NCBI GenBank assembly: GCA_037179385.1
Contig: CM074187.1
Coordinates: forward strand, 48,952,879-49,016,878
Reading direction: 5' to 3'
Length of the DNA: 64,000 bases
Origin: Holothuria scabra
Taxonomy: Eukaryota > Echinodermata > Holothuroidea > Aspidochirotida > Holothuriidae
Below the pieces are notes generated by a model. That model saw nothing but the letters and a program-made list of their open reading frames with translations, was not told the origin of the DNA and did not search any database. Below, in pieces: positions 15,641 to 55,959 of this stretch. The translations under genes and the position numbers were made by a program. Each line of letters opens with the position of its first letter. The stretch's first letter is position 1.

Positions 15641-16115
15641 TTAAGGGAGCACACCACCATTAATTTCTCCATTGACTTACACACTATTTTGCCTTCGTTA
15701 AATGCCCCCCGCAGCCCAGTCAAAGTTCACACCCCACTAAAGCTACCCCTCACATGAAAGCCAGTGAGTTGGCCAATCATGGCATCACAAATTCACCATA
15801 GCATGACCGTTTAGATTTTGAGATAAAAGGGGATGAAGTTTTGGGTCTGTACACCCTACCCTATTAATCCGCAGGTGACGGAAAAAACGTCTTTTTCACA
15901 CCAAATTTTTAAACAGTCTAAATCACCTTCAATTCTTCCCAATTTGGCAACAGTCACACATTTACACGTCCTCTTTCGTATCCAAAACAAACCAACCACA
16001 TCTGATTAGTTTAACTTGAGCAATTCACGCTTAGAGAGGACCTAAAACTGACGGTGTACTTTGGAACTACTTTTCCCGGCAAGGCCGTTCTGCTAATGGT
16101 GGTGTGCTCCCTTAA
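15641..16115 (+). mobile_element. Array MITE copy 1
   Basis: 475 bp including TTAA at both ends. Terminal inverted repeats are GGGAGCACACCACCATTA, perfect over 18 bp beyond TTAA. Internally non-coding. Its left flank is unique DNA, so it marks the array's left boundary. A TTAA duplication suggests a piggyBac-like mobiliser, but piggyBac termini normally begin CCC, not GGG. Confidence 0.85.
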
Positions 16116-18703
16116 GGGAATGTGAAATTTGGATTTGCTCTTCCAAACTTTTTAGACTCATTTTCAAACACATTTCTAGCTCAAAGTATGTCACAGTTTA
16201 ACTTTTCATTGCTTCTATATAGACTTCAGCACACCCAACTTGATGCTGGACATAGGGTCTTTTCTGTGCATTAACAGCTACACCCGGGTGTGTGAGAATC
16301 TCAACATACCTCCTCACACTGGATCACTTGCAAAGCAATTTGTTGCACTGATTTTGATTTCCTACTTAAGTTTTCTATTGCTGTGAAGCTGTGAAGCATT
16401 TTCTTTGCAAAAATTTGAAAGGTTAATATTCAGGCATGCCTTTATTCAGTCGCTGTGGTGATGCAGTCCATCCAACCATCAGGTCATATAGCACTCAATT
16501 CAAGTCTGGAAGGATAAAAAAGCAAAAGGGAAATGAAATCATTAATCTGATCAACAATTTTTAAGCTTTCTGACTTTATACCCATAGAGGAGATTTAGAA
16601 GGTGTCTTTTTGTTACATTATAGGAAAAATACTCACCATTCAGGCTGTTTCTGGAGAACTAAAAGGCTCATAAATTCAGGAGTGGAAAAATGAGGGCGCT
16701 ATTCAAAACATCTGCTTTTGGCAGATTTTGGTCCTGGCCCATCCCCAAACAACTTTTAACAGGGTATTTGTAGAAGGAAAAATTCTCTTACAATTATCTG
16801 AACTACAGAAATGATTAAGCTATCATTATCTTAAACTGAAACATCAGTGACAAACTAGTAACTCTGGAGGAAATAATCTGAAAAGTAAGATAACTTGTAA
16901 AGTTTTTTGCTGAGGTCTCTGTAATGTTAATTCACTCAATGGCAGTCCTATGAAGTTTGTAAGGGTGCTCCTAATTATGTTAAGAGGTTATACAAACCTT
17001 CTATCCCAGCTTGGCTGGGTAGTTTTGTTCCAGAATAAATAGATTACTTATATCTTGCTTTGCTAAAAATGTGAAAACTTCAGAACTTTTCAACAATTCA
17101 CACAACCAATGAAAGTAACTGCCTTTCAGACTTTGAGGTACAGTACCCTACTAACCAAGTCATAGGTATAATGAAAGCTAGTGCAGATATGCCACAACAT
17201 TAAATGGTAGACATTTATTGCGCTCATACATGTAGGTTGCTACTCTGCAGTCAGCAAACAATGTGGGTTAGGGAGAAAAGCACAACTACACTTCTATTAA
17301 TTTGAACCGTTTAGAGAATCCCTACAAAATTGTCACTCACATTAACTTATCTCCTTGATGACATTCATACAGTACTATACCAATGGCTGGAAACTTCAAT
17401 TTTATAGTCCTTGTAGAATGTGCAGCAAGAGATCCCCCACTCACAAATACCTACAGATACTTCAAATTACAAATCTCAAAGAAGAATACTAGGCATTATC
17501 CTTGACTCCTTCAAGGCATGCCAGTGGTAGGCCGGTCTGAATTACATCTGCTGGACTTCCTTACCTCAGTGTATTTAACTTAAGTATTTTTTTCCAGCAA
17601 TAACTATAGGCCTACAACATTTGGAAAATGCCCTGACTAAAGTCATGAAAAAATTTACAGACATACATTTAAAAGGCTGCATGCATGATTCAGTCTCCAC
17701 AAGGTGACTTCATCTATACTAAGGGCAGTTAGTTGATTCGCCTGGTTTGTGTTGCAAAAGAAAGTAGAACATCTTCTGTCTTCTCCAGTAGCTACCACAG
17801 AAAGCTGCAATTTGAAAGTGAACAGTTGAAATTAATGTGTGAAATACTCTTCTTGCATATCTGCTACCAAACAAGTATACCTCCAATCCAATTGGAGTTA
17901 ACAACAGTGTGACTGGCTTAATTTTTAGAACGAACAGCATTTTGAAATAGAGATCAAGCCCCAGCCAAATGGAGACTTGAAAAATATTATTTGATTGACA
18001 GCACTGTGTGTGTGTGTGGGGGGGTGGGGGACTGGTTTTGAGGGGTGGGGATATGCCACCATGCTTTGAACAAAACTGTTCAAGCTGGTGGCCTCCATTA
18101 ACCTCAAAATCCAGGCTACTGCTTTCTCTCCTTGCACGTAGTACAAACTAGGCCTAGGCCTATGTGTTTCAGTCTGGGCCTACGTTAAATGCAAAACAAC
18201 CGTGTGTGACGTTTTAAACAATCTATTTACCTTTGTACATGTGTGACTCGTAGAAATAACCCCCTACAACAAGCTAGACCATTGTTCTTGACTCGAAAAT
18301 GCTATCATATCAACTTCTAGGGACAAAGTGCACACACTTATGGCATGTGTTGACTAACGTTAATCACCAAGCAGCTGTTCGCGGAACTAGCTACTGTTTA
18401 TCTGGGGTGCCTGGGGAACCTGGGGGCTATGGTGGTGTAGAATGACCACTGGAACATTCAACTAATCTTCATTATTCATTTGCTTCCAAAAAATATCATA
18501 AAATAGACTGCAATTGTGCACTCTTTCCAAAAATCTCAATTAGGGTACTATTTTTTACCAAAAATTGCAATTTTGACATAAAAATCGTTCAAGCATGAAA
18601 TTCTGAGACGTCTCCTCAGAATCATGATTAGGACCCTAAAACAAGTCATTTAAGTCTAAATTAGGTGTCTTTATGTCAAAAATGAAGAAAATCAATTTCT
18701 CTC
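16116..18703 (+). repeat. Array spacer 1 (2,588 bp)
   Basis: It starts GGGAATGTGAAATTTGG and ends AAAATCAATTTCTCTC. It contains a (TG)n run followed by G7-T-G5 near 18,005-18,028, a GGCCTAGGCC block near 18,150 and scattered AATAAA. On the minus strand there are donor-like motifs (AATG|GTGAGTA near 16,638 and GAG|GTAAGG near 17,566), but no exon with coding character was found between them. If transcribed, it would more likely be a long non-coding RNA. Confidence 0.85.
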
Positions 18704-19178
18704 TTAAGGGAGCACACCACCATTAATTTCTCCATTGACTTACACACTATTTTGCCTTCGTTAAATGCCCCCCGCAGCCCAGTCAAAGTTCACACCCCAC
18801 TAAAGCTACCCCTCACATGAAAGCCAGTGAGTTGGCCAATCATGGCATCACAAATTCACCATAGCATGACCGTTTAGATTTTGAGATAAAAGGGGATGAA
18901 GTTTTGGGTCTGTACACCCTACCCTATTAATCCGCAGGTGACGGAAAAAACGTCTTTTTCACACCAAATTTTTAAACAGTCTAAATCACCTTCAATTCTT
19001 CCCAATTTGGCAACAGTCACACATTTACACGTCCTCTTTCGTATCCAAAACAAACCAACCACATCTGATTAGTTTAACTTGAGCAATTCACGCTTAGAGA
19101 GGACCTAAAACTGACGGTGTACTTTGGAACTACTTTTCCCGGCAAGGCCGTTCTGCTAATGGTGGTGTGCTCCCTTAA
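18704..19178 (+). mobile_element. Array MITE copy 2
   Basis: 475 bp, indistinguishable by eye from copy 1. Left neighbour is now the spacer end TTTCTCTC. Confidence 0.85.
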
Positions 19179-21765
19179 GGGAATGTGAAATTTGGATTTG
19201 CTCTTCCAAACTTTTTAGACTCATTTTCAAACACATTTCTAGCTCAAAGTATGTCACAGTTTAACTTTTCATTGCTTCTATATAGACTTCAGCACACCCA
19301 ACTTGATGCTGGACATAGGGTCTTTTCTGTGCATTAACAGCTACACCCGGGTGTGTGAGAATCTCAACATACCTCCTCACACTGGATCACTTGCAAAGCA
19401 ATTTGTTGCACTGATTTTGATTTCCTACTTAAGTTTTCTATTGCTGTGAAGCTGTGAAGCATTTTCTTTGCAAAAATTTGAAAGGTTAATATTCAGGCAT
19501 GCCTTTATTCAGTCGCTGTGGTGATGCAGTCCATCCAACCATCAGGTCATATAGCACTCAATTCAAGTCTGGAAGGATAAAAAAGCAAAAGGGAAATGAA
19601 ATCATTAATCTGATCAACAATTTTTAAGCTTTCTGACTTTATACCCATAGAGGAGATTTAGAAGGTGTCTTTTTGTTACATTATAGGAAAAATACTCACC
19701 ATTCAGGCTGTTTCTGGAGAACTAAAAGGCTCATAAATTCAGGAGTGGAAAAATGAGGGCGCTATTCAAAACATCTGCTTTTGGCAGATTTTGGTCCTGG
19801 CCCATCCCCAAACAACTTTTAACAGGGTATTTGTAGAAGGAAAAATTCTCTTACAATTATCTGAACTACAGAAATGATTAAGCTATCATTATCTTAAACT
19901 GAAACATCAGTGACAAACTAGTAACTCTGGAGGAAATAATCTGAAAAGTAAGATAACTTGTAAAGTTTTTTGCTGAGGTCTCTGTAATGTTAATTCACTC
20001 AATGGCAGTCCTATGAAGTTTGTAAGGGTGCTCCTAATTATGTTAAGAGGTTATACAAACCTTCTATCCCAGCTTGGCTGGGTAGTTTTGTTCCAGAATA
20101 AATAGATTACTTATATCTTGCTTTGCTAAAAATGTGAAAACTTCAGAACTTTTCAACAATTCACACAACCAATGAAAGTAACTGCCTTTCAGACTTTGAG
20201 GTACAGTACCCTACTAACCAAGTCATAGGTATAATGAAAGCTAGTGCAGATATGCCACAACATTAAATGGTAGACATTTATTGCGCTCATACATGTAGGT
20301 TGCTACTCTGCAGTCAGCAAACAATGTGGGTTAGGGAGAAAAGCACAACTACACTTCTATTAATTTGAACCGTTTAGAGAATCCCTACAAAATTGTCACT
20401 CACATTAACTTATCTCCTTGATGACATTCATACAGTACTATACCAATGGCTGGAAACTTCAATTTTATAGTCCTTGTAGAATGTGCAGCAAGAGATCCCC
20501 CACTCACAAATACCTACAGATACTTCAAATTACAAATCTCAAAGAAGAATACTAGGCATTATCCTTGACTCCTTCAAGGCATGCCAGTGGTAGGCCGGTC
20601 TGAATTACATCTGCTGGACTTCCTTACCTCAGTGTATTTAACTTAAGTATTTTTTCCAGCAATAACTATAGGCCTACAACATTTGGAAAATGCCCTGACT
20701 AAAGTCATGAAAAAATTTACAGACATACATTTAAAAGGCTGCATGCATGATTCAGTCTCCACAAGGTGACTTCATCTATACTAAGGGCAGTTAGTTGATT
20801 CGCCTGGTTTGTGTTGCAAAAGAAAGTAGAACATCTTCTGTCTTCTCCAGTAGCTACCACAGAAAGCTGCAATTTGAAAGTGAACAGTTGAAATTAATGT
20901 GTGAAATACTCTTCTTGCATATCTGCTACCAAACAAGTATACCTCCAATCCAATTGGAGTTAACAACAGTGTGACTGGCTTAATTTTTAGAACGAACAGC
21001 ATTTTGAAATAGAGATCAAGCCCCAGCCAAATGGAGACTTGAAAAATATTATTTGATTGACAGCACTGTGTGTGTGTGTGGGGGGGTGGGGGACTGGTTT
21101 TGAGGGGTGGGGATATGCCACCATGCTTTGAACAAAACTGTTCAAGCTGGTGGCCTCCATTAACCTCAAAATCCAGGCTACTGCTTTCTCTCCTTGCACG
21201 TAGTACAAACTAGGCCTAGGCCTATGTGTTTCAGTCTGGGCCTACGTTAAATGCAAAACAACCGTGTGTGACGTTTTAAACAATCTATTTACCTTTGTAC
21301 ATGTGTGACTCGTAGAAATAACCCCCTACAACAAGCTAGACCATTGTTCTTGACTCGAAAATGCTATCATATCAACTTCTAGGGACAAAGTGCACACACT
21401 TATGGCATGTGTTGACTAACGTTAATCACCAAGCAGCTGTTCGCGGAACTAGCTACTGTTTATCTGGGGTGCCTGGGGAACCTGGGGGCTATGGTGGTGT
21501 AGAATGACCACTGGAACATTCAACTAATCTTCATTATTCATTTGCTTCCAAAAAATATCATAAAATAGACTGCAATTGTGCACTCTTTCCAAAAATCTCA
21601 ATTAGGGTACTATTTTTTACCAAAAATTGCAATTTTGACATAAAAATCGTTCAAGCATGAAATTCTGAGACGTCTCCTCAGAATCATGATTAGGACCCTA
21701 AAACAAGTCATTTAAGTCTAAATTAGGTGTCTTTATGTCAAAAATGAAGAAAATCAATTTCTCTC
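19179..21765 (+). repeat. Array spacer 2 (2,587 bp)
   Basis: Differs from spacer 1 by one T fewer in the T-run before CCAGC (near 20,650). Confidence 0.85.
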
Positions 21766-22240
21766 TTAAGGGAGCACACCACCATTAATTTCTCCATTGA
21801 CTTACACACTATTTTGCCTTCGTTAAATGCCCCCCGCAGCCCAGTCAAAGTTCACACCCCACTAAAGCTACCCCTCACATGAAAGCCAGTGAGTTGGCCA
21901 ATCATGGCATCACAAATTCACCATAGCATGACCGTTTAGATTTTGAGATAAAAGGGGATGAAGTTTTGGGTCTGTACACCCTACCCTATTAATCCGCAGG
22001 TGACGGAAAAAACGTCTTTTTCACACCAAATTTTTAAACAGTCTAAATCACCTTCAATTCTTCCCAATTTGGCAACAGTCACACATTTACACGTCCTCTT
22101 TCGTATCCAAAACAAACCAACCACATCTGATTAGTTTAACTTGAGCAATTCACGCTTAGAGAGGACCTAAAACTGACGGTGTACTTTGGAACTACTTTTC
22201 CCGGCAAGGCCGTTCTGCTAATGGTGGTGTGCTCCCTTAA
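21766..22240 (+). mobile_element. Array MITE copy 3
   Basis: 475 bp with intact TTAA-flanked termini. Confidence 0.85.
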
Positions 22241-24826
22241 GGGAATGTGAAATTTGGATTTGCTCTTCCAAACTTTTTAGACTCATTTTCAAACACATTT
22301 CTAGCTCAAAGTATGTCACAGTTTAACTTTTCATTGCTTCTATATAGACTTCAGCACACCCAACTTGATGCTGGACATAGGGTCTTTTCTGTGCATTAAC
22401 AGCTACACCCGGGTGTGTGAGAATCTCAACATACCTCCTCACACTGGATCACTTGCAAAGCAATTTGTTGCACTGATTTTGATTTCCTACTTAAGTTTTC
22501 TATTGCTGTGAAGCTGTGAAGCATTTTCTTTGCAAAAATTTGAAAGGTTAATATTCAGGCATGCCTTTATTCAGTCGCTGTGGTGATGCAGTCCATCCAA
22601 CCATCAGGTCATATAGCACTCAATTCAAGTCTGGAAGGATAAAAAAGCAAAAGGGAAATGAAATCATTAATCTGATCAACAATTTTTAAGCTTTCTGACT
22701 TTATACCCATAGAGGAGATTTAGAAGGTGTCTTTTGTTACATTATAGGAAAAATACTCACCATTCAGGCTGTTTCTGGAGAACTAAAAGGCTCATAAATT
22801 CAGGAGTGGAAAAATGAGGGCGCTATTCAAAACATCTGCTTTTGGCAGATTTTGGTCCTGGCCCATCCCCAAACAACTTTTAACAGGGTATTTGTAGAAG
22901 GAAAAATTCTCTTACAATTATCTGAACTACAGAAATGATTAAGCTATCATTATCTTAAACTGAAACATCAGTGACAAACTAGTAACTCTGGAGGAAATAA
23001 TCTGAAAAGTAAGATAACTTGTAAAGTTTTTTGCTGAGGTCTCTGTAATGTTAATTCACTCAATGGCAGTCCTATGAAGTTTGTAAGGGTGCTCCTAATT
23101 ATGTTAAGAGGTTATACAAACCTTCTATCCCAGCTTGGCTGGGTAGTTTTGTTCCAGAATAAATAGATTACTTATATCTTGCTTTGCTAAAAATGTGAAA
23201 ACTTCAGAACTTTTCAACAATTCACACAACCAATGAAAGTAACTGCCTTTCAGACTTTGAGGTACAGTACCCTACTAACCAAGTCATAGGTATAATGAAA
23301 GCTAGTGCAGATATGCCACAACATTAAATGGTAGACATTTATTGCGCTCATACATGTAGGTTGCTACTCTGCAGTCAGCAAACAATGTGGGTTAGGGAGA
23401 AAAGCACAACTACACTTCTATTAATTTGAACCGTTTAGAGAATCCCTACAAAATTGTCACTCACATTAACTTATCTCCTTGATGACATTCATACAGTACT
23501 ATACCAATGGCTGGAAACTTCAATTTTATAGTCCTTGTAGAATGTGCAGCAAGAGATCCCCCACTCACAAATACCTACAGATACTTCAAATTACAAATCT
23601 CAAAGAAGAATACTAGGCATTATCCTTGACTCCTTCAAGGCATGCCAGTGGTAGGCCGGTCTGAATTACATCTGCTGGACTTCCTTACCTCAGTGTATTT
23701 AACTTAAGTATTTTTTTCCAGCAATAACTATAGGCCTACAACATTTGGAAAATGCCCTGACTAAAGTCATGAAAAAATTTACAGACATACATTTAAAAGG
23801 CTGCATGCATGATTCAGTCTCCACAAGGTGACTTCATCTATACTAAGGGCAGTTAGTTGATTCGCCTGGTTTGTGTTGCAAAAGAAAGTAGAACATCTTC
23901 TGTCTTCTCCAGTAGCTACCACAGAAAGCTGCAATTTGAAAGTGAACAGTTGAAATTAATGTGTGAAATACTCTTCTTGCATATCTGCTACCAAACAAGT
24001 ATACCTCCAATCCAATTGGAGTTAACAACAGTGTGACTGGCTTAATTTTTAGAACGAACAGCATTTTGAAATAGAGATCAAGCCCCAGCCAAATGGAGAC
24101 TTGAAAAATATTATTTGATTGACAGCACTGTGTGTGTGTGTGGGGGGGTGGGGGACTGGTTTTGAGGGGTGGGGATATGCCACCATGCTTTGAACAAAAC
24201 TGTTCAAGCTGGTGGCCTCCATTAACCTCAAAATCCAGGCTACTGCTTTCTCTCCTTGCACGTAGTACAAACTAGGCCTAGGCCTATGTGTTTCAGTCTG
24301 GGCCTACGTTAAATGCAAAACAACCGTGTGTGACGTTTTAAACAATCTATTTACCTTTGTACATGTGTGACTCGTAGAAATAACCCCTACAACAAGCTAG
24401 ACCATTGTTCTTGACTCGAAAATGCTATCATATCAACTTCTAGGGACAAAGTGCACACACTTATGGCATGTGTTGACTAACGTTAATCACCAAGCAGCTG
24501 TTCGCGGAACTAGCTACTGTTTATCTGGGGTGCCTGGGGAACCTGGGGGCTATGGTGGTGTAGAATGACCACTGGAACATTCAACTAATCTTCATTATTC
24601 ATTTGCTTCCAAAAAATATCATAAAATAGACTGCAATTGTGCACTCTTTCCAAAAATCTCAATTAGGGTACTATTTTTTACCAAAAATTGCAATTTTGAC
24701 ATAAAAATCGTTCAAGCATGAAATTCTGAGACGTCTCCTCAGAATCATGATTAGGACCCTAAAACAAGTCATTTAAGTCTAAATTAGGTGTCTTTATGTC
24801 AAAAATGAAGAAAATCAATTTCTCTC
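22241..24826 (+). repeat. Array spacer 3 (2,586 bp)
   Basis: Carries T4 instead of T5 in GGTGTCTTTTG (near 22,730) and C4 instead of C5 in AACCCCTAC (near 24,385). The first variant recurs in spacer 5 and the second in spacer 8. Confidence 0.85.
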
Positions 24827-25301
24827 TTAAGGGAGCACACCACCATTAATTTCTCCATTGACTTACACACTATTTTGCCTTCGTTAAATGCCCCCCGCAG
24901 CCCAGTCAAAGTTCACACCCCACTAAAGCTACCCCTCACATGAAAGCCAGTGAGTTGGCCAATCATGGCATCACAAATTCACCATAGCATGACCGTTTAG
25001 ATTTTGAGATAAAAGGGGATGAAGTTTTGGGTCTGTACACCCTACCCTATTAATCCGCAGGTGACGGGAAAAACGTCTTTTTCACACCAAATTTTTAAAC
25101 AGTCTAAATCACCTTCAATTCTTCCCAATTTGGCAACAGTCACACATTTACACGTCCTCTTTCGTATCCAAAACAAACCAACCACATCTGATTAGTTTAA
25201 CTTGAGCAATTCACGCTTAGAGAGGACCTAAAACTGACGGTGTACTTTGGAACTACTTTTCCCGGCAAGGCCGTTCTGCTAATGGTGGTGTGCTCCCTTA
25301 A
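24827..25301 (+). mobile_element. Array MITE copy 4
   Basis: 475 bp. One substitution gives GACGGGAAAAACG where other copies have GACGGAAAAAACG. Confidence 0.85.
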
Positions 25302-27894
25302 GGGAATGTGAAATTTGGATTTGCTCTTCCAAACTTTTTAGACTCATTTTCAAACACATTTCTAGCTCAAAGTATGTCACAGTTTAACTTTTCATTGCTT
25401 CTATATAGACTTCAGCACACCCAACTTGATGCTGGACATAGGGTCTTTTCTGTGCATTAACAGCTACACCCGGGTGTGTGAGAATCTCAACATACCTCCT
25501 CACACTGGATCACTTGCAAAGCAATTTGTTGCACTGATTTTGATTTCCTACTTAAGTTTTCTATTGCTGTGAAGCTGTGAAGCATTTTCTTTGCAAAAAT
25601 TTGAAAGGTTAATATTCAGGCATGCCTTTATTCAGTCGCTGTGGTGATGCAGTCCATCCAACCATCAGGTCATATAGCACTCAATTCAAGTCTGGAAGGA
25701 TAAAAAAGCAAAAGGGAAATGAAATCATTAATCTGATCAACAATTTTTAAGCTTTCTGACTTTATACCCATAGAGGAGATTTAGAAGGTGTCTTTTTGTT
25801 ACATTATAGGAAAAATACTCACCATTCAGGCTGTTTCTGGAGAACTAAAAGGCTCATAAATTCAGGAGTGGAAAAATGAGGGCGCTATTCAAAACATCTG
25901 CTTTTGGCAGATTTTGGTCCTGGCCCATCCCCAAACAACTTTTAACAGGGTATTTGTAGAAGGAAAAATTCTCTTACAATTATCTGAACTACAGAAATGA
26001 TTAAGCTATCATTATCTTAAACTGAAACATCAGTGACAAACTAGTAACTCTGGAGGAAATAATCTGAAAAGTAAGATAACTTGTAAAGTTTTTTGCTGAG
26101 GTCTCTGTAATGTTAATTCACTCAATGGCAGTCCTATGAAGTTTGTAAGGGTGCTCCTAATTATGTTAAGAGGTTATACAAACCTTCTATCCCAGCTTGG
26201 CTGGGTAGTTTTGTTCCAGAATAAATAGATTACTTATATCTTGCTTTGCTAAAAATGTGAAAACTTCAGAACTTTTCAACAATTCACACAACCAATGAAA
26301 GTAACTGCCTTTCAGACTTTGAGGTACAGTACCCTACTAACCAAGTCATAGGTATAATGAAAGCTAGTGCAGATATGCCACAACATTAAATGGTAGACAT
26401 TTATTGCGCTCATACATGTAGGTTGCTACTCTGCAGTCAGCAAACAATGTGGGTTAGGGAGAAAAGCACAACTACACTTCTATTAATTTGAACCGTTTAG
26501 AGAATCCCTACAAAATTGTCACTCACATTAACTTATCTCCTTGATGACATTCATACAGTACTATACCAATGGCTGGAAACTTCAATTTTATAGTCCTTGT
26601 AGAATGTGCAGCAAGAGATCCCCCACTCACAAATACCTACAGATACTTCAAATTACAAATCTCAAAGAAGAATACTAGGCATTATCCTTGACTCCTTCAA
26701 GGCATGCCAGTGGTAGGCCGGTCTGAATTACATCTGCTGGACTTCCTTACCTCAGTGTATTTAACTTAAGTATTTTTTTCCAGCAATAACTATAGGCCTA
26801 CAACATTTGGAAAATGCCCTGACTAAAGTCATGAAAAAATTTACAGACATACATTTAAAAGGCTGCATGCATGATTCAGTCTCCACAAGGTGACTTCATC
26901 TATACTAAGGGCAGTTAGTTGATTCGCCTGGTTTGTGTTGCAAAAGAAAGTAGAACATCTTCTGTCTTCTCCAGTAGCTACCACAGAAAGCTGCAATTTG
27001 AAAGTGAACAGTTGAAATTAATGTGTGAAATACTCTTCTTGCATATCTGCTACCAAACAAGTATACCTCCAATCCAATTGGAGTTAACAACAGTGTGACT
27101 GGCTTAATTTTTAGAACGAACAGCATTTTGAAATAGAGATCAAGCCCCAGCCAAATGGAGACTTGAAAAATATTATTTGATTGACAGCACTGTGTGTGTG
27201 TGTGGGGGGGGGGGGTGGGGGACTGGTTTTGAGGGGTGGGGATATGCCACCATGCTTTGAACAAAACTGTTCAAGCTGGTGGCCTCCATTAACCTCAAAA
27301 TCCAGGCTACTGCTTTCTCTCCTTGCACGTAGTACAAACTAGGCCTAGGCCTATGTGTTTCAGTCTGGGCCTACGTTAAATGCAAAACAACCGTGTGTGA
27401 CGTTTTAAACAATCTATTTACCTTTGTACATGTGTGACTCGTAGAAATAACCCCCTACAACAAGCTAGACCATTGTTCTTGACTCGAAAATGCTATCATA
27501 TCAACTTCTAGGGACAAAGTGCACACACTTATGGCATGTGTTGACTAACGTTAATCACCAAGCAGCTGTTCGCGGAACTAGCTACTGTTTATCTGGGGTG
27601 CCTGGGGAACCTGGGGGCTATGGTGGTGTAGAATGACCACTGGAACATTCAACTAATCTTCATTATTCATTTGCTTGCAAAAAGTATCATAAAATAGACT
27701 GCAATTGTGCACTCTTTCCAAAAATCTCAATTAGGGTACTATTTTTTACCAAAAATTGCAATTTTGACATAAAAATCGTTCAAGCATGAAATTCTGAGAC
27801 GTCTCCTCAGAATCATGATTAGGACCCTAAAACAAGTCATTTAAGTCTAAATTAGGTGTCTTTATGTCAAAAATGAAGAAAATCAATTTCTCTC
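25302..27894 (+). repeat. Array spacer 4 (2,593 bp)
   Basis: The longest spacer: the G-run after the (TG)n tract near 27,200 is expanded. It also has GCTTGCAAAAAGTATC where others have GCTTCCAAAAAATATC. The longer G-run joins two short minus-strand frames into 119 codons (27,264-26,905). Confidence 0.85.
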
Positions 27895-28369
27895 TTAAGG
27901 GAGCACACCACCATTAATTTCTCCATTGACTTACACACTATTTTGCCTTCGTTAAATGCCCCCCGCAGCCCAGTCAAAGTTCACACCCCACTAAAGCTAC
28001 CCCTCACATGAAAGCCAGTGAGTTGGCCAATCATGGCATCACAAATTCACCATAGCATGACCGTTTAGATTTTGAGATAAAAGGGGATGAAGTTTTGGGT
28101 CTGTACACCCTACCCTATTAATCCGCAGGTGACGGAAAAAACGTCTTTTTCACACCAAATTTTTAAACAGTCTAAATCACCTTCAATTCTTCCCAATTTG
28201 GCAACAGTCACACATTTACACGTCCTCTTTCGTATCCAAAACAAACCAACCACATCTGATTAGTTTAACTTGAGCAATTCACGCTTAGAGAGGACCTAAA
28301 ACTGACGGTGTACTTTGGAACTACTTTTCCCGGCAAGGCCGTTCTGCTAATGGTGGTGTGCTCCCTTAA
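27895..28369 (+). mobile_element. Array MITE copy 5
   Basis: 475 bp with intact TTAA-flanked termini. Confidence 0.85.
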
Positions 28370-30955: not shown

Positions 30956-31430
30956 TTAAGGGAGCACACCACCATTAATTTCTCCATTGACTTACACACT
31001 ATTTTGCCTTCGTTAAATGCCCCCCGCAGCCCAGTCAAAGTTCACACCCCACTAAAGCTACCCCTCACATGAAAGCCAGTGAGTTGGCCAATCATGGCAT
31101 CACAAATTCACCATAGCATGACCGTTTAGATTTTGAGATAAAAGGGGATGAAGTTTTGGGTCTGTACACCCTACCCTATTAATCCGCAGGTGACGGAAGA
31201 AACGTCTTTTTCACACCAAATTTTTAAACAGTCTAAATCACCTTCAATTCTTCCCAATTTGGCAACAGTCACACATTTACACGTCCTCTTTCGTATCCAA
31301 AACAAACCAACCACATCTGATTAGTTTAACTTGAGCAATTCACGCTTAGAGAGGACCTAAAACTGACGGTGTACTTTGGAACTACTTTTCCCGGCAAGGC
31401 CGTTCTGCTAATGGTGGTGTGCTCCCTTAA
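30956..31430 (+). mobile_element. Array MITE copy 6
   Basis: 475 bp. One substitution gives GACGGAAGAAACG. Confidence 0.85.
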
Positions 31431-34018
31431 GGGAATGTGAAATTTGGATTTGCTCTTCCAAACTTTTTAGACTCATTTTCAAACACATTTCTAGCTCAAA
31501 GTATGTCACAGTTTAACTTTTCATTGCTTCTATATAGACTTCAGCACACCCAACTTGATGCTGGACATAGGGTCTTTTCTGTGCATTAACAGCTACACCC
31601 GGGTGTGTGAGAATCTCAACATACCTCCTCACACTGGATCACTTGCAAAGCAATTTGTTGCACTGATTTTGATTTCCTACTTAAGTTTTCTATTGCTGTG
31701 AAGCTGTGAAGCATTTTCTTTGCAAAAATTTGAAAGGTTAATATTCAGGCATGCCTTTATTCAGTCGCTGTGGTGATGCAGTCCATCCAACCATCAGGTC
31801 ATATAGCACTCAATTCAAGTCTGGAAGGATAAAAAAGCAAAAGGGAAATGAAATCATTAATCTGATCAACAATTTTTAAGCTTTCTGACTTTATACCCAT
31901 AGAGGAGATTTAGAAGGTGTCTTTTTGTTACATTATAGGAAAAATACTCACCATTCAGGCTGTTTCTGGAGAACTAAAAGGCTCATAAATTCAGGAGTGG
32001 AAAAATGAGGGCGCTATTCAAAACATCTGCTTTTGGCAGATTTTGGTCCTGGCCCATCCCCAAACAACTTTTAACAGGGTATTTGTAGAAGGAAAAATTC
32101 TCTTACAATTATCTGAACTACAGAAATGATTAAGCTATCATTATCTTAAACTGAAACATCAGTGACAAACTAGTAACTCTGGAGGAAATAATCTGAAAAG
32201 TAAGATAACTTGTAAAGTTTTTTGCTGAGGTCTCTGTAATGTTAATTCACTCAATGGCAGTCCTATGAAGTTTGTAAGGGTGCTCCTAATTATGTTAAGA
32301 GGTTATACAAACCTTCTATCCCAGCTTGGCTGGGTAGTTTTGTTCCAGAATAAATAGATTACTTATATCTTGCTTTGCTAAAAATGTGAAAACTTCAGAA
32401 CTTTTCAACAATTCACACAACCAATGAAAGTAACTGCCTTTCAGACTTTGAGGTACAGTACCCTACTAACCAAGTCATAGGTATAATGAAAGCTAGTGCA
32501 GATATGCCACAACATTAAATGGTAGACATTTATTGCGCTCATACATGTAGGTTGCTACTCTGCAGTCAGCAAACAATGTGGGTTAGGGAGAAAAGCACAA
32601 CTACACTTCTATTAATTTGAACCGTTTAGAGAATCCCTACAAAATTGTCACTCACATTAACTTATCTCCTTGATGACATTCATACAGTACTATACCAATG
32701 GCTGGAAACTTCAATTTTATAGTCCTTGTAGAATGTGCAGCAAGAGATCCCCCACTCACAAATACCTACAGATACTTCAAATTACAAATCTCAAAGAAGA
32801 ATACTAGGCATTATCCTTGACTCCTTCAAGGCATGCCAGTGGTAGGCCGGTCTGAATTACATCTGCTGGACTTCCTTACCTCAGTGTATTTAACTTAAGT
32901 ATTTTTTTCCAGCAATAACTATAGGCCTACAACATTTGGAAAATGCCCTGACTAAAGTCATGAAAAAATTTACAGACATACATTTAAAAGGCTGCATGCA
33001 TGATTCAGTCTCCACAAGGTGACTTCATCTATACTAAGGGCAGTTAGTTGATTCGCCTGGTTTGTGTTGCAAAAGAAAGTAGAACATCTTCTGTCTTCTC
33101 CAGTAGCTACCACAGAAAGCTGCAATTTGAAAGTGAACAGTTGAAATTAATGTGTGAAATACTCTTCTTGCATATCTGCTACCAAACAAGTATACCTCCA
33201 ATCCAATTGGAGTTAACAACAGTGTGACTGGCTTAATTTTTAGAACGAACAGCATTTTGAAATAGAGATCAAGCCCCAGCCAAATGGAGACTTGAAAAAT
33301 ATTATTTGATTGACAGCACTGTGTGTGTGTGTGGGGGGGTGGGGGACTGGTTTTGAGGGGTGGGGATATGCCACCATGCTTTGAACAAAACTGTTCAAGC
33401 TGGTGGCCTCCATTAACCTCAAAATCCAGGCTACTGCTTTCTCTCCTTGCACGTAGTACAAACTAGGCCTAGGCCTATGTGTTTCAGTCTGGGCCTACGT
33501 TAAATGCAAAACAACCGTGTGTGACGTTTTAAACAATCTATTTACCTTTGTACATGTGTGACTCGTAGAAATAACCCCCTACAACAAGCTAGACCATTGT
33601 TCTTGACTCGAAAATGCTATCATATCAACTTCTAGGGACAAAGTGCACACACTTATGGCATGTGTTGACTAACGTTAATCACCAAGCAGCTGTTCGCGGA
33701 ACTAGCTACTGTTTATCTGGGGTGCCTGGGGAACCTGGGGGCTATGGTGGTGTAGAATGACCACTGGAACATTCAACTAATCTTCATTATTCATTTGCTT
33801 CCAAAAAATATCATAAAATAGACTGCAATTGTGCACTCTTTCCAAAAATCTCAATTAGGGTACTATTTTTTACCAAAAATTGCAATTTTGACATAAAAAT
33901 CGTTCAAGCATGAAATTCTGAGACGTCTCCTCAGAATCATGATTAGGACCCTAAAACAAGTCATTTAAGTCTAAATTAGGTGTCTTTATGTCAAAAATGA
34001 AGAAAATCAATTTCTCTC
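31431..34018 (+). repeat. Array spacer 6 (2,588 bp)
   Basis: Looks identical to spacer 1 by eye. Confidence 0.85.
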
Positions 34019-34492
34019 TTAAGGGAGCACACCACCATTAATTTCTCCATTGACTTACACACTATTTTGCCTTCGTTAAATGCCCCCCGCAGCCCAGTCA
34101 AAGTTCACACCCCACTAAAGCTACCCCTCACATGAAAGCCAGTGAGTTGGCCAATCATGGCATCACAAATTCACCATAGCATGACCGTTTAGATTTTGAG
34201 ATAAAAGGGGATGAAGTTTTGGGTCTGTACACCCTACCCTATTAATCCGCAGGTGACGGAAAAACGTCTTTTTCACACCAAATTTTTAAACAGTCTAAAT
34301 CACCTTCAATTCTTCCCAATTTGGCAACAGTCACACATTTACACGTCCTCTTTCGTATCCAAAACAAACCAACCACATCTGATTAGTTTAACTTGAGCAA
34401 TTCACGCTTAGAGAGGACCTAAAACTGACGGTGTACTTTGGAACTACTTTTCCCGGCAAGGCCGTTCTGCTAATGGTGGTGTGCTCCCTTAA
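34019..34492 (+). mobile_element. Array MITE copy 7
   Basis: 474 bp: one A fewer in the A-run of GACGGAAAAACG. This deletion opens a 61-codon plus-strand frame (34,211-34,396) absent from most copies, so that frame is not a conserved gene. Confidence 0.85.
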
Positions 34493-37082
34493 GGGAATGT
34501 GAAATTTGGATTTGCTCTTCCAAACTTTTTAGACTCATTTTCAAACACATTTCTAGCTCAAAGTATGTCACAGTTTAACTTTTCATTGCTTCTATATAGA
34601 CTTCAGCACACCCAACTTGATGCTGGACATAGGGTCTTTTCTGTGCATTAACAGCTACACCCGGGTGTGTGAGAATCTCAACATACCTCCTCACACTGGA
34701 TCACTTGCAAAGCAATTTGTTGCACTGATTTTGATTTCCTACTTAAGTTTTCTATTGCTGTGAAGCTGTGAAGCATTTTCTTTGCAAAAATTTGAAAGGT
34801 TAATATTCAGGCATGCCTTTATTCAGTCGCTGTGGTGATGCAGTCCATCCAACCATCAGGTCATATAGCACTCAATTCAAGTCTGGAAGGATAAAAAAGC
34901 AAAAGGGAAATGAAATCATTAATCTGATCAACAATTTTTAAGCTTTCTGACTTTATACCCATAGAGGAGATTTAGAAGGTGTCTTTTTGTTACATTATAG
35001 GAAAAATACTCACCATTCAGGCTGTTTCTGGAGAACTAAAAGGCTCATAAATTCAGGAGTGGAAAAATGAGGGCGCTATTCAAAACATCTGCTTTTGGCA
35101 GATTTTGGTCCTGGCCCATCCCCAAACAACTTTTAACAGGGTATTTGTAGAAGGAAAAATTCTCTTACAATTATCTGAACTACAGAAATGATTAAGCTAT
35201 CATTATCTTAAACTGAAACATCAGTGACAAACTAGTAACTCTGGAGGAAATAATCTGAAAAGTAAGATAACTTGTAAAGTTTTTTGCTGAGGTCTCTGTA
35301 ATGTTAATTCACTCAATGGCAGTCCTATGAAGTTTGTAAGGGTGCTCCTAATTATGTTAAGAGGTTATACAAACCTTCTATCCCAGCTTGGCTGGGTAGT
35401 TTTGTTCCAGAATAAATAGATTACTTATATCTTGCTTTGCTAAAAATGTGAAAACTTCAGAACTTTTCAACAATTCACACAACCAATGAAAGTAACTGCC
35501 TTTCAGACTTTGAGGTACAGTACCCTACTAACCAAGTCATAGGTATAATGAAAGCTAGTGCAGATATGCCACAACATTAAATGGTAGACATTTATTGCGC
35601 TCATACATGTAGGTTGCTACTCTGCAGTCAGCAAACAATGTGGGTTAGGGAGAAAAGCACAACTACACTTCTATTAATTTGAACCGTTTAGAGAATCCCT
35701 ACAAAATTGTCACTCACATTAACTTATCTCCTTGATGACATTCATACAGTACTATACCAATGGCTGGAAACTTCAATTTTATAGTCCTTGTAGAATGTGC
35801 AGCAAGAGATCCCCCACTCACAAATACCTACAGATACTTCAAATTACAAATCTCAAAGAAGAATACTAGGCATTATCCTTGACTCCTTCAAGGCATGCCA
35901 GTGGTAGGCCGGTCTGAATTACATCTGCTGGACTTCCTTACCTCAGTGTATTTAACTTAAGTATTTTTTTCCAGCAATAACTATAGGCCTACAACATTTG
36001 GAAAATGCCCTGACTAAAGTCATGAAAAAATTTACAGACATACATTTAAAAGGCTGCATGCATGATTCAGTCTCCACAAGGTGACTTCATCTATACTAAG
36101 GGCAGTTAGTTGATTCGCCTGGTTTGTGTTGCAAAAGAAAGTAGAACATCTTCTGTCTTCTCCAGTAGCTACCACAGAAAGCTGCAATTTGAAAGTGAAC
36201 AGTTGAAATTAATGTGTGAAATACTCTTCTTGCATATCTGCTACCAAACAAGTATACCTCCAATCCAATTGGAGTTAACAACAGTGTGACTGGCTTAATT
36301 TTTAGAACGAACAGCATTTTGAAATAGAGATCAAGCCCCAGCCAAATGGAGACTTGAAAAATATTATTTGATTGACAGCACTGTGTGTGTGTGTGGGGGG
36401 GGGTGGGGGACTGGTTTTGAGGGGTGGGGATATGCCACCATGCTTTGAACAAAACTGTTCAAGCTGGTGGCCTCCATTAACCTCAAAATCCAGGCTACTG
36501 CTTTCTCTCCTTGCACGTAGTACAAACTAGGCCTAGGCCTATGTGTTTCAGTCTGGGCCTACGTTAAATGCAAAACAACCGTGTGTGACGTTTTAAACAA
36601 TCTATTTACCTTTGTACATGTGTGACTCGTAGAAATAACCCCCTACAACAAGCTAGACCATTGTTCTTGACTCGAAAATGCTATCATATCAACTTCTAGG
36701 GACAAAGTGCACACACTTATGGCATGTGTTGACTAACGTTAATCACCAAGCAGCTGTTCGCGGAACTAGCTACTGTTTATCTGGGGTGCCTGGGGAACCT
36801 GGGGGCTATGGTGGTGTAGAATGACCACTGGAACATTCAACTAATCTTCATTATTCATTTGCTTCCAAAAAATATCATAAAATAGACTGCAATTGTGCAC
36901 TCTTTCCAAAAATCTCAATTAGGGTACTATTTTTTACCAAAAATTGCAATTTTGACATAAAAATCGTTCAAGCATGAAATTCTGAGACGTCTCCTCAGAA
37001 TCATGATTAGGACCCTAAAACAAGTCATTTAAGTCTAAATTAGGTGTCTTTATGTCAAAAATGAAGAAAATCAATTTCTCTC
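34493..37082 (+). repeat. Array spacer 7 (2,590 bp)
   Basis: Moderately expanded G-run near 36,395, which fuses the minus-strand frames into 118 codons (36,452-36,096). Confidence 0.85.
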
Positions 37083-37556
37083 TTAAGGGAGCACACCACC
37101 ATTAATTTCTCCATTGACTTACACACTATTTTGCCTTCGTTAAATGCCCCCCGCAGCCCAGTCAAAGTTCACACCCCACTAAAGCTACCCCTCACATGAA
37201 AGCCAGTGAGTTGGCCAATCATGGCATCACAAATTCACCATAGCATGACCGTTTAGATTTTGAGATAAAAGGGGATGAAGTTTTGGGTCTGTACACCCTA
37301 CCCTATTAATCCGCAGGTGACGGAAAAACGTCTTTTTCACACCAAATTTTTAAACAGTCTAAATCACCTTCAATTCTTCCCAATTTGGCAACAGTCACAC
37401 ATTTACACGTCCTCTTTCGTATCCAAAACAAACCAACCACATCTGATTAGTTTAACTTGAGCAATTCACGCTTAGAGAGGACCTAAAACTGACGGTGTAC
37501 TTTGGAACTACTTTTCTCGGCAAGGCCGTTCTGCTAATGGTGGTGTGCTCCCTTAA
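37083..37556 (+). mobile_element. Array MITE copy 8
   Basis: 474 bp. It shares copy 7's one-A deletion and adds TTTCTCGG for TTTCCCGG. Sharing with its neighbour suggests copies 7 and 8 descend from a recent local duplication. Confidence 0.85.
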
Positions 37557-40141
37557 GGGAATGTGAAATTTGGATTTGCTCTTCCAAACTTTTTAGACTC
37601 ATTTTCAAACACATTTCTAGCTCAAAGTATGTCACAGTTTAACTTTTCATTGCTTCTATATAGACTTCAGCACACCCAACTTGATGCTGGACATAGGGTC
37701 TTTTCTGTGCATTAACAGCTACACCCGGGTGTGTGAGAATCTCAACATACCTCCTCACACTGGATCACTTGCAAAGCAATTTGTTGCACTGATTTTGATT
37801 TCCTACTTAAGTTTTCTATTGCTGTGAAGCTGTGAAGCATTTTCTTTGCAAAAATTTGAAAGGTTAATATTCAGGCATGCCTTTATTCAGTCGCTGTGGT
37901 GATGCAGTCCATCCAACCATCAGGTCATATAGCACTCAATTCAAGTCTGGAAGGATAAAAAAGCAAAAGGGAAATGAAATCATTAATCTGATCAACAATT
38001 TTTAAGCTTTCTGACTTTATACCCATAGAGGAGATTTAGAAGGTGTCTTTTTGTTACATTATAGGAAAAATACTCACCATTCAGGCTGTTTCTGGAGAAC
38101 TAAAAGGCTCATAAATTCAGGAGTGGAAAAATGAGGGCGCTATTCAAAACATCTGCTTTTGGCAGATTTTGGTCCTGGCCCATCCCCAAACAACTTTTAA
38201 CAGGGTATTTGTAGAAGGAAAAATTCTCTTACAATTATCTGAACTACAGAAATGATTAAGCTATCATTATCTTAAACTGAAACATCAGTGACAAACTAGT
38301 AACTCTGGAGGAAATAATCTGAAAAGTAAGATAACTTGTAAAGTTTTTTGCTGAGGTCTCTGTAATGTTAATTCACTCAATGGCAGTCCTATGAAGTTTG
38401 TAAGGGTGCTCCTAATTATGTTAAGAGGTTATACAAACCTTCTATCCCAGCTTGGCTGGGTAGTTTTGTTCCAGAATAAATAGATTACTTATATCTTGCT
38501 TTGCTAAAAATGTGAAAACTTCAGAACTTTTCAACAATTCACACAACCAATGAAAGTAACTGCCTTTCAGACTTTGAGGTACAGTACCCTACTAACCAAG
38601 TCATAGGTATAATGAAAGCTAGTGCAGATATGCCACAACATTAAATGGTAGACATTTATTGCGCTCATACATGTAGGTTGCTACTCTGCAGTCAGCAAAC
38701 AATGTGGGTTAGGGAGAAAAGCACAACTACACTTCTATTAATTTGAACCGTTTAGAGAATCCCTACAAAATTGTCACTCACATTAACTTATCTCCTTGAT
38801 GACATTCATACAGTACTATACCAATGGCTGGAAACTTCAATTTTATAGTCCTTGTAGAATGTGCAGCAAGAGATCCCCCACTCACAAATACCTACAGATA
38901 CTTCAAATTACAAATCTCAAAGAAGAATACTAGGCATTATCCTTGACTCCTTCAAGGCATGCCAGTGGTAGGCCGGTCTGAATTACATCTGCTGGACTTC
39001 CTTACCTCAGTGTATTTAACTTAAGTATTTTTTTCCAGCAATAACTATAGGCCTACAACATTTGGAAAATGCCCTGACTAAAGTCATGAAAAAATTTACA
39101 GACATACATTTAAAAGGCTGCATGCATGATTCAGTCTCCACAAGGTGACTTCATCTATACTAAGGGCAGTTAGTTGATTCGCCTGGTTTGTGTTGCAAAA
39201 GAAAGTAGAACATCTTCTGTCTTCTCCAGTAGCTACCACAGAAAGCTGCAATTTGAAAGTGAACAGTTGAAATTAATGTGTGAAATACTCTTCTTGCATA
39301 TCTGCTACCAAACAAGTATACCTCCAATCCAATTGGAGTTAACAACAGTGTGACTGGCTTAATTTTTAGAACGAACAGCATTTTGAAATAGAGATCAAGC
39401 CCCAGCCAAATGGAGACTTGAAAAATATTATTTGATTGACAGCACTGTGTGTGTGTGTGTGGAGGGGGGACTGGTTTTGAGGGGTGGGGATATGCCACCA
39501 TGCTTTGAACAAAACTGTTCAAGCTGGTGGCCTCCATTAACCTCAAAATCCAGGCTACTGCTTTCTCTCCTTGCACGTAGTACAAACTAGGCCTAGGCCT
39601 ATGTGTTTCAGTCTGGGCCTACGTTAAATGCAAAACAACCGTGTGTGACGTTTTAAACAATCTATTTACCTTTGTACATGTGTGACTCGTAGAAATAACC
39701 CCTACAACAAGCTAGACCATTGTTCTTGACTCGAAAATGCTATCATATCAACTTCTAGGGACAAAGTGCACACACTTATGGCATGTGTTGACTAACGTTA
39801 ATCACCAAGCAGCTGTTCGCGGAACTAGCTACTGTTTATCTGGGGTGCCTGGGGAACCTGGGGGCTATGGTGGTGTAGAATGACCACTGGAACATTCAAC
39901 TAATCTTCATTATTCATTTGCTTCCAAAAAATATCATAAAATAGACTGCAATTGTGCACTCTTTCCAAAAATCTCAATTAGGGTACTATTTTTTACCAAA
40001 AATTGCAATTTTGACATAAAAATCGTTCAAGCATGAAATTCTGAGACGTCTCCTCAGAATCATGATTAGGACCCTAAAACAAGTCATTTAAGTCTAAATT
40101 AGGTGTCTTTATGTCAAAAATGAAGAAAATCAATTTCTCTC
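37557..40141 (+). repeat. Array spacer 8 (2,585 bp)
   Basis: Most divergent at the (TG)n tract near 39,445, where a longer TG run is followed by GGAGGGGGGA. It also has the C4 variant in AACCCCTAC. The minus-strand frame becomes 141 codons (39,585-39,160) only because of these changes. Confidence 0.85.
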
Positions 40142-40616
40142 TTAAGGGAGCACACCACCATTAATTTCTCCATTGACTTACACACTATTTTGCCTTCGTT
40201 AAATGCCCCCCGCAGCCCAGTCAAAGTTCACACCCCACTAAAGCTACCCCTCACATGAAAGCCAGTGAGTTGGCCAATCATGGCATCACAAATTCACCAT
40301 AGCATGACCGTTTAGATTTTGAGATAAAAGGGGATGAAGTTTTGGGTCTGTACACCCTACCCTATTAATCCGCAGGTGACGGAAAAAACGTCTTTTTCAC
40401 ACCAAATTTTTAAACAGTCTAAATCACCTTCAATTCTTCCCAATTTGGCAACAGTCACACATTTACACGTCCTCTTTCGTATCCAAAACAAACCAACCAC
40501 ATCTGATTAGTTTAACTTGAGCAATTCACGCTTAGAGAGGACCTAAAACTGACGGTGTACTTTGGAACTACTTTTCCCGGCAAGGCCGTTCTGCTAATGG
40601 TGGTGTGCTCCCTTAA
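40142..40616 (+). mobile_element. Array MITE copy 9
   Basis: 475 bp, full A-run. Its right TTAA is followed by unique DNA (GCTATTGTTGG), so it marks the array's right boundary. Confidence 0.85.
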
Positions 40617-52660: not shown

Positions 52661-52864
52661 GTGATGGACCCCAGTTATGGCCGACTGAAATCAGACCATC
52701 ACTTGCTGTCCGGATTCGTGTATAGACCTAGGCACGGATCCACCATACTGGAGGACAGTCCTGCCAAATACGCGTGGCTTGTACAAAACGCACTGCATAG
52801 TCTGTACTCTGGCGGTGTGAACGCATTCATCGAGCAAGCGCGTCAAATGTGGTTTACTACGTAG
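52661..52864 (+). other. Unrecognised open frame, possible exon
   Basis: From ATG 52,664 in a favourable context (GGTGATGGA) it reads MDPSYGRLKSDHHLLSGFVY then RPRHGSTILEDSPAKYAWL and, toward the end, SGGVNAFIEQARQMWFTT. The local sequence is GC-richer than its flanks. All three minus frames also have long open runs, so chance is possible. No function suggested. Confidence 0.2.
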
Positions 52865-53003
52865 TTATCTGTACTCCAACTTGGCCGCCGGGAAGTATTA
52901 TGACGTCATTTGAAAAACCTCTATTATAACAGCATTTTTACATTGACACAAAGGGAACAATTGCTTCTGGAGGTTAAACCTTGGAAAGACCTTAATTCAG
53001 AAA

Positions 53004-55453: not shown

Positions 55454-55959
55454 GGCCGTTTGGAATACCGTTTTCACAGTTATTCGGGAATTTCAAATAT
55501 CTTCAATTAATTTCAGATATAATTCAATTTCAGATATCTCTTATTCAATTTCAGATATCTCTTATTCTATTTCAGATATCTCTTATTCATTTTCCGATAT
55601 CTCTAATTCAATTTCAGATATCTCTAATTCAGTTACAGATATCTCTAATTCTATTTCATATATCTCTAATTCAATTAGCTATCTTTAATTCAATTTCAGA
55701 TATCTCAAATTCAATTTCAGATATCTATAATTCTGTTTCAGATATCTCTAATTCTATTTCATAATCTCTAATTCTATTTCAGATATCTCTAATTCAATTT
55801 CATATATCTCTAATTATATTTCAGATACCTCTAATTCAATTTTAGATATCTTTAATTCCATTTCAGATATCTAAAATAGTGCAATATCTTGGTTATCTGA
55901 AATTAATTAGAGATATCTGAAATTCCTGAATAAATGTTATAACGGTATTCCATACGGCC
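55454..55959. mobile_element. MITE whose interior is a 21-bp minisatellite (506 bp)
   Basis: Terminal inverted repeats of about 70 bp: GGCCGTTTGGAATACCGTT on the left and, in reverse complement, GGCCGTATGGAATACCGTT on the right. They continue through ATTC.GGAATTTCA.ATATCT and AATTAATTTCAGATA. Between them lies only a tandem repeat. No coding capacity is likely. Superfamily unknown, and no target duplication was identified. Confidence 0.7.
55521..55876 (+). repeat. 21-bp minisatellite, about 17 copies
   Basis: The unit is AATTCAATTTCAGATATCTCT with point variants and a few 1-2-base losses. Because 21 is a multiple of three, one frame reads a repeating SISDISY/SISDISN heptad, explaining an 86-codon open frame at 55,428-55,688 that need not be translated. 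The GATATC core is self-complementary. Confidence 0.85.

What the first reader, a model, noticed from the sequence alone, without database searches (positions are those of the whole stretch)
15641..40616. Young macrosatellite bounded exactly by MITEs
Seen: nine 474-475-bp TTAA-flanked MITEs alternate with eight spacers of about 2,588 bp, all in the same orientation, and both array edges fall precisely at a MITE edge. Inference: two MITEs first inserted about 2.6 kb apart in direct orientation, then unequal exchange between them multiplied the MITE+spacer unit. This makes a MITE pair the seed of a macrosatellite, rather than a MITE with internal tandem repeats. A composite transposon that jumped with both MITEs is the main alternative.
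Basis: partly seen in the sequence, partly recalled or inferred. Interest (0 to 1): 0.8.

Follow-up and report, generated by a model that had tools for sequence, protein, structure and literature searches.

The report
Eightfold jumping-gene array, KolobokP type
The array is a known, unusual kind of animal jumping gene with matching repeats at both ends, here stacked eight times in a row by copying one unit; it is a clean young example rather than a new kind of element.

Summary
Nine directly repeated 466-467-bp repeats (474-475 bp with both TTAAs) alternate with eight spacers of about 2,588 bp, and both edges fall on a repeat edge. The proposed origin, two chance MITE insertions at this site, is not supported. 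The repeat-spacer-repeat unit is a dispersed mobile element: seven single copies were read elsewhere in the same genome. Six of the eight repeat-spacer-repeat insertions (window included) have perfect 4-bp target duplications: TTTG, TTAT, TTGT, TTCA and TTAA twice. The architecture is that of KolobokP DNA transposons (Kojima & Bao 2022, PMC9587614): terminal direct repeats with their own inverted repeats, and multimers (LTDR-INT)n-LTDR. A likely autonomous partner is in the genome: LTDRs 92% identical, a transposase, and a His-Me nuclease on the opposite strand. The window is therefore a non-autonomous KolobokP octamer, probably grown by unequal exchange between LTDRs. Two additions: LTDR pairs of single copies tend to match by locus (2 of 5,040 pairings as close; 5 of 7 left repeats closest to their own partner), and all eight INT|LTDR junctions match the I-PpoI site at 14 of 15 bases. 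The second is only a lead; the partner's junctions match less well.

The parts
15641..15644 (.). left outer target-site duplication (TTAA)
15645..16111 (+). LTDR 1 (467 bp, 18-bp terminal inverted repeats GGGAGCACACCACCATTA)
16112..18707 (+). INT 1 (starts and ends with TTAA; longest frame 142 aa, no Pfam match)
18708..19174 (+). LTDR 2
19175..21769 (+). INT 2
21770..22236 (+). LTDR 3
22237..24830 (+). INT 3
24831..25297 (+). LTDR 4
25298..27898 (+). INT 4
27899..28365 (+). LTDR 5
28366..30959 (+). INT 5
30960..31426 (+). LTDR 6
31427..34022 (+). INT 6
34023..34488 (+). LTDR 7
34489..37086 (+). INT 7
37087..37552 (+). LTDR 8
37553..40145 (+). INT 8 (its unit is the most diverged, 4 substitutions from the commonest unit sequence)
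40146..40612 (+). LTDR 9
40613..40616 (.). right outer target-site duplication (TTAA)
18699..18713 (+). first of eight INT|LTDR junctions that match the I-PpoI site at 14 of 15 bases (others start at 21761, 24822, 27890, 30951, 34014, 37078, 40137); a lead only

Best explanation
This is one insertion of a non-autonomous KolobokP-type DNA transposon (LTDR-INT-LTDR, about 3.53 kb) at a TTAA target, multiplied in place to (LTDR-INT)8-LTDR. Shown: the unit is a dispersed mobile element found as a whole between 4-bp target duplications, and the genome holds a relative with similar LTDRs, a transposase and a His-Me nuclease. Inferred: the transposase acts in trans on the inverted repeats at the LTDR ends and moved the unit here. 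The two identical direct LTDRs then mispaired, and unequal exchange or break repair added one LTDR+INT per event, leaving both edges on LTDR edges and the outer TTAAs unchanged. Inferred and less certain: the element's nuclease stimulates this by cutting at or in the LTDRs. The array is young: five of its eight units and a single copy on C21 have no substitutions between them.
For: Structure and edges. Seven single copies elsewhere, five with perfect 4-bp duplications TTTG, TTAT, TTGT, TTCA, TTAA. Joined flanks of the C15:26.09M and C10 copies, 2 of 4 tried, align without interruption to repeats lacking the element. Partner L072: LTDRs 92% identical, transposase PF20700 E=2.4e-41 on the LTDR strand, nuclease PF05551 E=9.3e-13 on the other, TTAA on both outer sides. 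The transposase frame carries a CCHC-like finger, a DxxH and a Cys/His cluster before a KAES motif. Repeats with spacer on both sides at C14, C18 and C22:24.4M, so multimers there too. The C21 single copy has 0 substitutions from units w1, w2, w3, w5 and w7. The published KolobokP description matches in architecture.
Against: No coding match was found in the array, so membership rests on architecture, on the LTDR match to one partner copy, and on an 87-bp, 72% match between the two INTs. Pfam names the transposase Mutator-like; no Kolobok tree was built. Products of unequal exchange (shorter or longer alleles) were not seen. Insertion of a ready-made multimer is not excluded. Two of eight repeat-spacer-repeat loci have imperfect duplications (C2 TTAA/TGAA, C15:31.36M TCAA/TTAA), as does the solo repeat (CCAA/TTAA).
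Confidence: 0.88

Rival explanations
1. One reading: two independent MITEs landed 2.6 kb apart in the native sequence of this locus and unequal exchange between them made the array; the dispersed copies are later exports from here.
For: Array edges on repeat edges and TTAA on every side. The C21 copy is substitution-identical to most array units, so one export from here is possible.
Against: Five other single copies (C15:26.09M, C2, C9, C10, C15:31.36M) differ from the commonest array unit by 32-50 substitutions (C22:34.31M not compared), far more than the 0-6 within the array, so the composite is older than this array. A partner family in the genome has the same paired architecture.
Confidence: 0.04
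2. The octamer was inserted ready-made: transposase used the outermost inverted repeats of a longer array elsewhere, or a multimeric circle, and pasted it in at one TTAA.
For: Outer duplications are intact. Other multimers exist in the genome. The right-most unit is the most diverged, so not all units are equally young.
Against: Among the repeats compared only the C21 single copy shares the window's three private substitutions; no donor array was seen. An insert of about 25 kb is long.
Confidence: 0.15
3. Each new copy arises as a cointegrate: one LTDR on a circular LTDR-INT molecule is copied into the target, which by itself yields LTDR-INT-LTDR with two identical LTDRs and an outer duplication. 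Arrays come from repeats of this or from exchange.
For: In four of seven single copies both LTDRs share substitutions absent from the other single copies (C2 3, C21 3, C10 1, C15:31.36M 1), and no column separates left from right at more than one of the seven loci. 12 differences summed over seven pairs against a mean of 28.4 for all 5,040 pairings, 2 of which are as low.
Against: Local gene conversion predicts the same. Two of seven left LTDRs are closer to another locus than to their own partner: C22:34.31M (5 differences) and C9 (3). Some of the shared substitutions recur in arrays (C21's in the window; those of C10 and C15:31.36M in C14 repeats). No circle was observed. I lowered this from 0.20 to 0.17 on recounting C9.
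Confidence: 0.17
4. LTR retrotransposon or TRIM with tandem arrays, as in Cassandra.
For: Same R-S-R-S-R look, paired repeats mostly alike at each locus, 4-bp duplications (PMC7215508 for the arrays).
Against: Repeat ends are GGGAG...CTCCC with 18-bp inverted repeats, not TG...CA; of three frames of the partner scanned, one matches a transposase, one a nuclease and one nothing.
Confidence: 0.01

Closest known systems
KolobokP DNA transposons (Kojima & Bao 2022, PMC9587614)
   Same: LTDR of the 450-bp class (467 bp), own 18-bp inverted repeats starting RR and ending YY, internal region that starts and ends with one tetranucleotide (stated there for one family), 4-bp duplications, single units, multimers and a possible solo repeat; partner with transposase and opposite-strand His-Me nuclease.
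   Different: The window is an octamer, and 9 repeat hits on C14 spread over 83 kb, 7 of their 8 gaps being whole multiples of the unit. I did not see the paper's supplement, so cannot say whether its authors met this family or longer arrays. The 14-of-15 I-PpoI-like junction is not mentioned in the parts of the paper that I read (4 of 6).
Cassandra TRIM tandem arrays (PMC7215508; abstract, outline and passages seen)
   Same: (repeat-internal)n-repeat arrays in which neighbours share a terminal repeat; at least 12 units reported there.
   Different: Retroelements moved through RNA; the KolobokP paper notes that LTRs have no inverted repeats beyond TG..CA.
Bacterial composite and pseudo-composite transposons (IS26 translocatable units; as described in PMC9587614)
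   Same: Two direct mobile repeats flank an internal region and the whole moves.
   Different: There the transposase lies in the IS; in KolobokP it lies in the internal region, and the pair is the normal state of the family.
Tetris/DAIBAM foldback element and TIR-220 satellite (PMC4079207; abstract and outline seen)
   Same: A DNA transposon as the source of longer tandem arrays.
   Different: There the repeats inside the inverted ends are amplified; here whole elements sharing their ends are.

Membership tests
[quoted passage not shown]
   466-467-bp repeats in the window and about 467-bp repeats in seven single copies
KolobokP | Each LTDR has its own 11-18 bp inverted repeats, 5'-RR and YY-3' | tested here: met
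   18-bp perfect inverted repeats GGGAGCACACCACCATTA inside TTAA
KolobokP | 3-5 bp target duplications outside the whole unit | tested here: met
   Perfect in 6 of 8 repeat-spacer-repeat loci with both flanks seen (window TTAA, C15:26.09M TTTG, C9 TTAT, C10 TTGT, C21 TTCA, C22 TTAA); imperfect in 2 (C2, C15:31.36M)
KolobokP | Multimers (LTDR-INT)n-LTDR | tested here: met
   Window n=8; repeats with spacer on both sides at C14, C18 and C22:24.4M; C4 and C6 only by hit spacing
KolobokP | Solo LTDRs | tested here: inconclusive
   One repeat without spacer within 1.5 kb on either side, L059 at C15:34.488M, but its flanks are CCAA and TTAA
KolobokP | Autonomous relative: DDE transposase on the direct strand, His-Me nuclease downstream on the complementary strand | tested here: met
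   L072 (C5), LTDRs 92% identical; PF20700 2.4e-41 and PF05551 9.3e-13; whether the copy is intact was not tested
KolobokP | Transposase groups with KolobokP within Kolobok (CCHC finger, C/DxxH, finger before E) | tested here: inconclusive
   Patterns match at residues 200-221, 286-289 (one of four loose C/DxxH matches), 356-378, and KAES at 431; no tree built, Pfam label is Mutator-like
TTAA-specific MITE (piggyBac or classical Kolobok) | Target duplication always TTAA | tested here: not met
   TTTG, TTAT, TTGT, TTCA at four copies
LTR retrotransposon / TRIM | LTR termini TG...CA | tested here: not met
   GGGAG...CTCCC
LTR retrotransposon / TRIM | Primer-binding site and polypurine tract | not tested
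   No scan was run

The most novel reading that the evidence does not exclude
The INT|LTDR boundary of this family is a homing site for the partner's I-PpoI-type nuclease. Every unit then carries a built-in break point exactly at its LTDR edge, so cutting drives both the homogenising of LTDR pairs and the growth of macrosatellite arrays: a transposon whose nuclease turns insertions into satellites.
Probability: 0.1. Interest if true: 0.65.

Novelty: new member of a known kind. Interest (0 to 1): 0.32.

Why it matters
It explains a striking macrosatellite without a new mechanism, and places a transposon lineage named in one paper of the held library in another genome, together with a likely autonomous partner. 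The young octamer, its substitution-identical single copy on C21, and clusters of nuclease genes in the same genome make a good system for testing how direct-repeat-ended DNA transposons keep their ends alike and become satellites.

Tried and rejected
Rejected: MITE pair seeding in situ (older dispersed copies exist); TTAA-only element (four other duplications seen); LTR/TRIM (termini); chance repeats (25 kb at 99.8%). Rfam gave no match in the window at gathering thresholds. No Pfam match for the 142-aa spacer frame; a 152-aa frame in INT 8 was not scanned.

Left unfinished: spacer-only genome search and junction count (not completed), so spacer without repeat elsewhere, and total copy number, are unknown. 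Only 40 of 1,828 first-look candidates for the repeat were scored, and only 4 of 1,889 for the whole unit. The larger arrays were not read through; unit numbers there rest on hit spacing. In one search most of the newly added repeats were aligned in the wrong orientation; they were turned and recounted. The five-pair sum (7) agrees.

The I-PpoI-like junction: striking in the window (8 of 8 junctions at one mismatch; one other hit at up to 2 mismatches; shuffles mean 0.09), but all eight are copies of one sequence. The partner scores only 10 and 11 of 15 at its two junctions and the window's LTDR|INT junction 11 of 15. In the seven loci of distant nuclease families that I printed, the INT ends in CCCTAAA or CCCCAAA before GGTCTC, with no such match by eye. 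Kept as a lead. Solved-structure searches gave no homing endonuclease for the nuclease and nothing for the transposase.

Full report
What is there. The window holds nine directly repeated 467-bp sequences (two of them 466) alternating with eight spacers. Each repeat is flanked by TTAA and each spacer is 2,593-2,601 bp with both TTAAs counted. The repeat begins GGGAGCACACCACCATTA and ends with its exact reverse complement. Units are 3,059-3,068 bp long. Five of the eight have no substitutions between them; the right-most unit is the most different, with four. The self-comparison and the repeat search found neither repeat nor spacer in the window's flanks. Frames in the spacer are at most 142 aa in INT 1 and 152 aa in INT 8; the 142-aa one has no Pfam match and the 152-aa one was not scanned.

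It is a mobile element, not a local accident. A search of the same genome (1.19 Gb, 31 contigs, unnamed) found the full repeat-spacer unit at four other places, each followed by a second repeat (4 of 1,889 candidates scored). A search with the repeat alone scored 40 of 1,828 candidates: 9 in the window, 9 on C14 between 44.919 and 45.002 Mb, 5 on C22 near 24.4 Mb, 4 on C4, 2 each on C6, C18, C21 and C15:26.09M, and 1 each at five places. At C14, C18 and C22:24.4M the repeats that were read have spacer on both sides, so these are multimers. Seven single units were read at both ends, six of them in full. With the window that gives eight repeat-spacer-repeat loci with both flanks: six have perfect 4-bp duplications (TTAA twice, TTTG, TTAT, TTGT, TTCA) and two do not (C2 TTAA/TGAA; C15:31.36M TCAA/TTAA). 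Inside, the junctions read are TTAA on both sides of the spacer. Joined flanks of the C15:26.09M and C10 copies align without interruption to repeats lacking the element; those of C2 and C9:1.31M found no such match.

It has a likely autonomous partner. The Pfam family PF05551 (zf-His_Me_endon, zinc-binding loop region of homing endonuclease) matches at 77 places in this genome and in none of 14 control genomes. One of them, C5:57.41M (L072), carries two direct repeats 92% identical to ours, TTAA on both outer sides, a 579-aa frame matching PF20700 (E=2.4e-41) on the repeat's strand and a 171-aa nuclease frame (PF05551, E=9.3e-13) on the other. The transposase frame has a CCHC-like finger, a DxxH (one of four loose C/DxxH matches) and a Cys/His cluster before a KAES motif, the order given for KolobokP. 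The partner's internal region shares only 87 bp at 72% with our spacer, so the window family is a non-autonomous relative rather than a simple deletion of this copy.

What it is called. Kojima & Bao 2022 (PMC9587614; I read parts 1-4 of 6, plus passages) describe KolobokP by these features: paired long terminal direct repeats with their own short inverted repeats, 3-5 bp duplications, an internal region that in one family begins and ends with the same tetranucleotide, solo repeats, and multimers (LTDR-INT)n-LTDR. They propose unequal crossover, perhaps induced by the nuclease, or circles, for the multimers. The word KolobokP occurs in 1 paper of the library. Membership is met on architecture and on the partner; the transposase tree was not done.

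How it most likely works. Shown: whole-unit insertion elsewhere, a partner, recency. Inferred: a transposase in trans inserted a single unit at TTAA; the two identical direct repeats then mispaired and exchange multiplied the unit. Insertion of a ready-made array is not excluded. A single copy on C21 (TTCA duplication) has no substitutions from five array units, so transposition and amplification are both recent; which came first is open.

Paired ends. In six single copies the left and right repeats differ by 0, 1, 3, 2, 1 and 0 bases, 7 in all, against a mean of 23 over all 720 pairings, of which only the true one is as low. Four of the six have substitutions shared by both repeats and absent from the other single copies; those of C21 recur in the window array, and those of C10 and C15:31.36M in some C14 repeats. 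A seventh copy (C22:34.31M) has repeats that differ by 5. With it the sum is 12 against a mean of 28.4, and 2 of 5,040 pairings are as low; no alignment column separates left from right at more than one of the seven loci. Against a simple reading: the left repeats of C22:34.31M and C9 are closer to the right repeat of another locus than to their own, so 5 of 7 pair with themselves. The pair is thus usually made from one template or homogenised locally; cointegrate-like insertion and gene conversion are both compatible, and I lowered the former from 0.20 to 0.17 on this recount.

A lead. The spacer|repeat junction, CTCTCTTAAGGGAGC, matches the I-PpoI site CTCTCTTAAGGTAGC (site seen in a passage of PMC6294500) at 14 of 15 bases, at 8 of 8 junctions, with one other window hit at up to two mismatches and 0.09 expected. 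The KolobokP paper places the nuclease of the lineage close to I-PpoI. Against it: the partner's own junctions score 10 and 11, the window's repeat|spacer junction 11, and the eight copies are one event.

Nuclease-bearing clusters. In one search, 45 of the 77 matches lie in four clusters with mostly about 4.38-kb spacing (C10:32.76M 9, C16:25.47M 13, C10:9.06M 11, C18:34.22M 12). The loci read from the first two (9 of 9 and 7 of 13 matches) carry a repeat about 73% like ours over positions 6-333. This suggests that multimers are common in this genome, also for families with a nuclease frame, although at C10:32.76M and C16 the match contains two TGA stops in every copy listed.

Verdict. Observation confirmed; the in-situ MITE-pair origin is not supported; known kind, new family member as far as seen here, well preserved and young.

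Noticed in passing
G000:C10:32.760-32.796M, C16:25.467-25.521M, C10:9.060-9.109M, C18:34.223-34.274M: Four clusters of 9, 13, 11 and 12 matches to PF05551 with mostly about 4.38-kb spacing; in the first two every listed match holds two TGA stops.
   Followed up: partly
G000:C18:17.792-17.815M: Four PF05551 matches at about 7.65-kb spacing, a different and longer period.
   Followed up: no
L010, L074, L059: Imperfect outer 4-bp duplications (TTAA/TGAA, TCAA/TTAA, CCAA/TTAA), in each of which one side is TTAA like the internal junctions; may be carried flank rather than mutation.
   Followed up: no
L059, just 3' of the solo repeat: The solo repeat is followed by TTAAGGGAGCAG, which again resembles the start of a repeat.
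   Followed up: no
window 58959-59342 (-): Open frame with a Pfam sulfotransferase match (E=5.1e-5), probably an exon of a host gene; a second frame at 60063-60425 (-) has no match.
   Followed up: partly
window 55489-55872, 56441-57042, 60800-60946: Ordinary tandem repeats with periods of 21, 156 and 4 bp; the C10 copy of the element sits in a repeat related to the 156-bp one.
   Followed up: partly
window 52733-52925: A dispersed repeat whose relative on C15:26.09M received the transposon; the window copy aligns across the joined flanks, 81.5% identity.
   Followed up: yes
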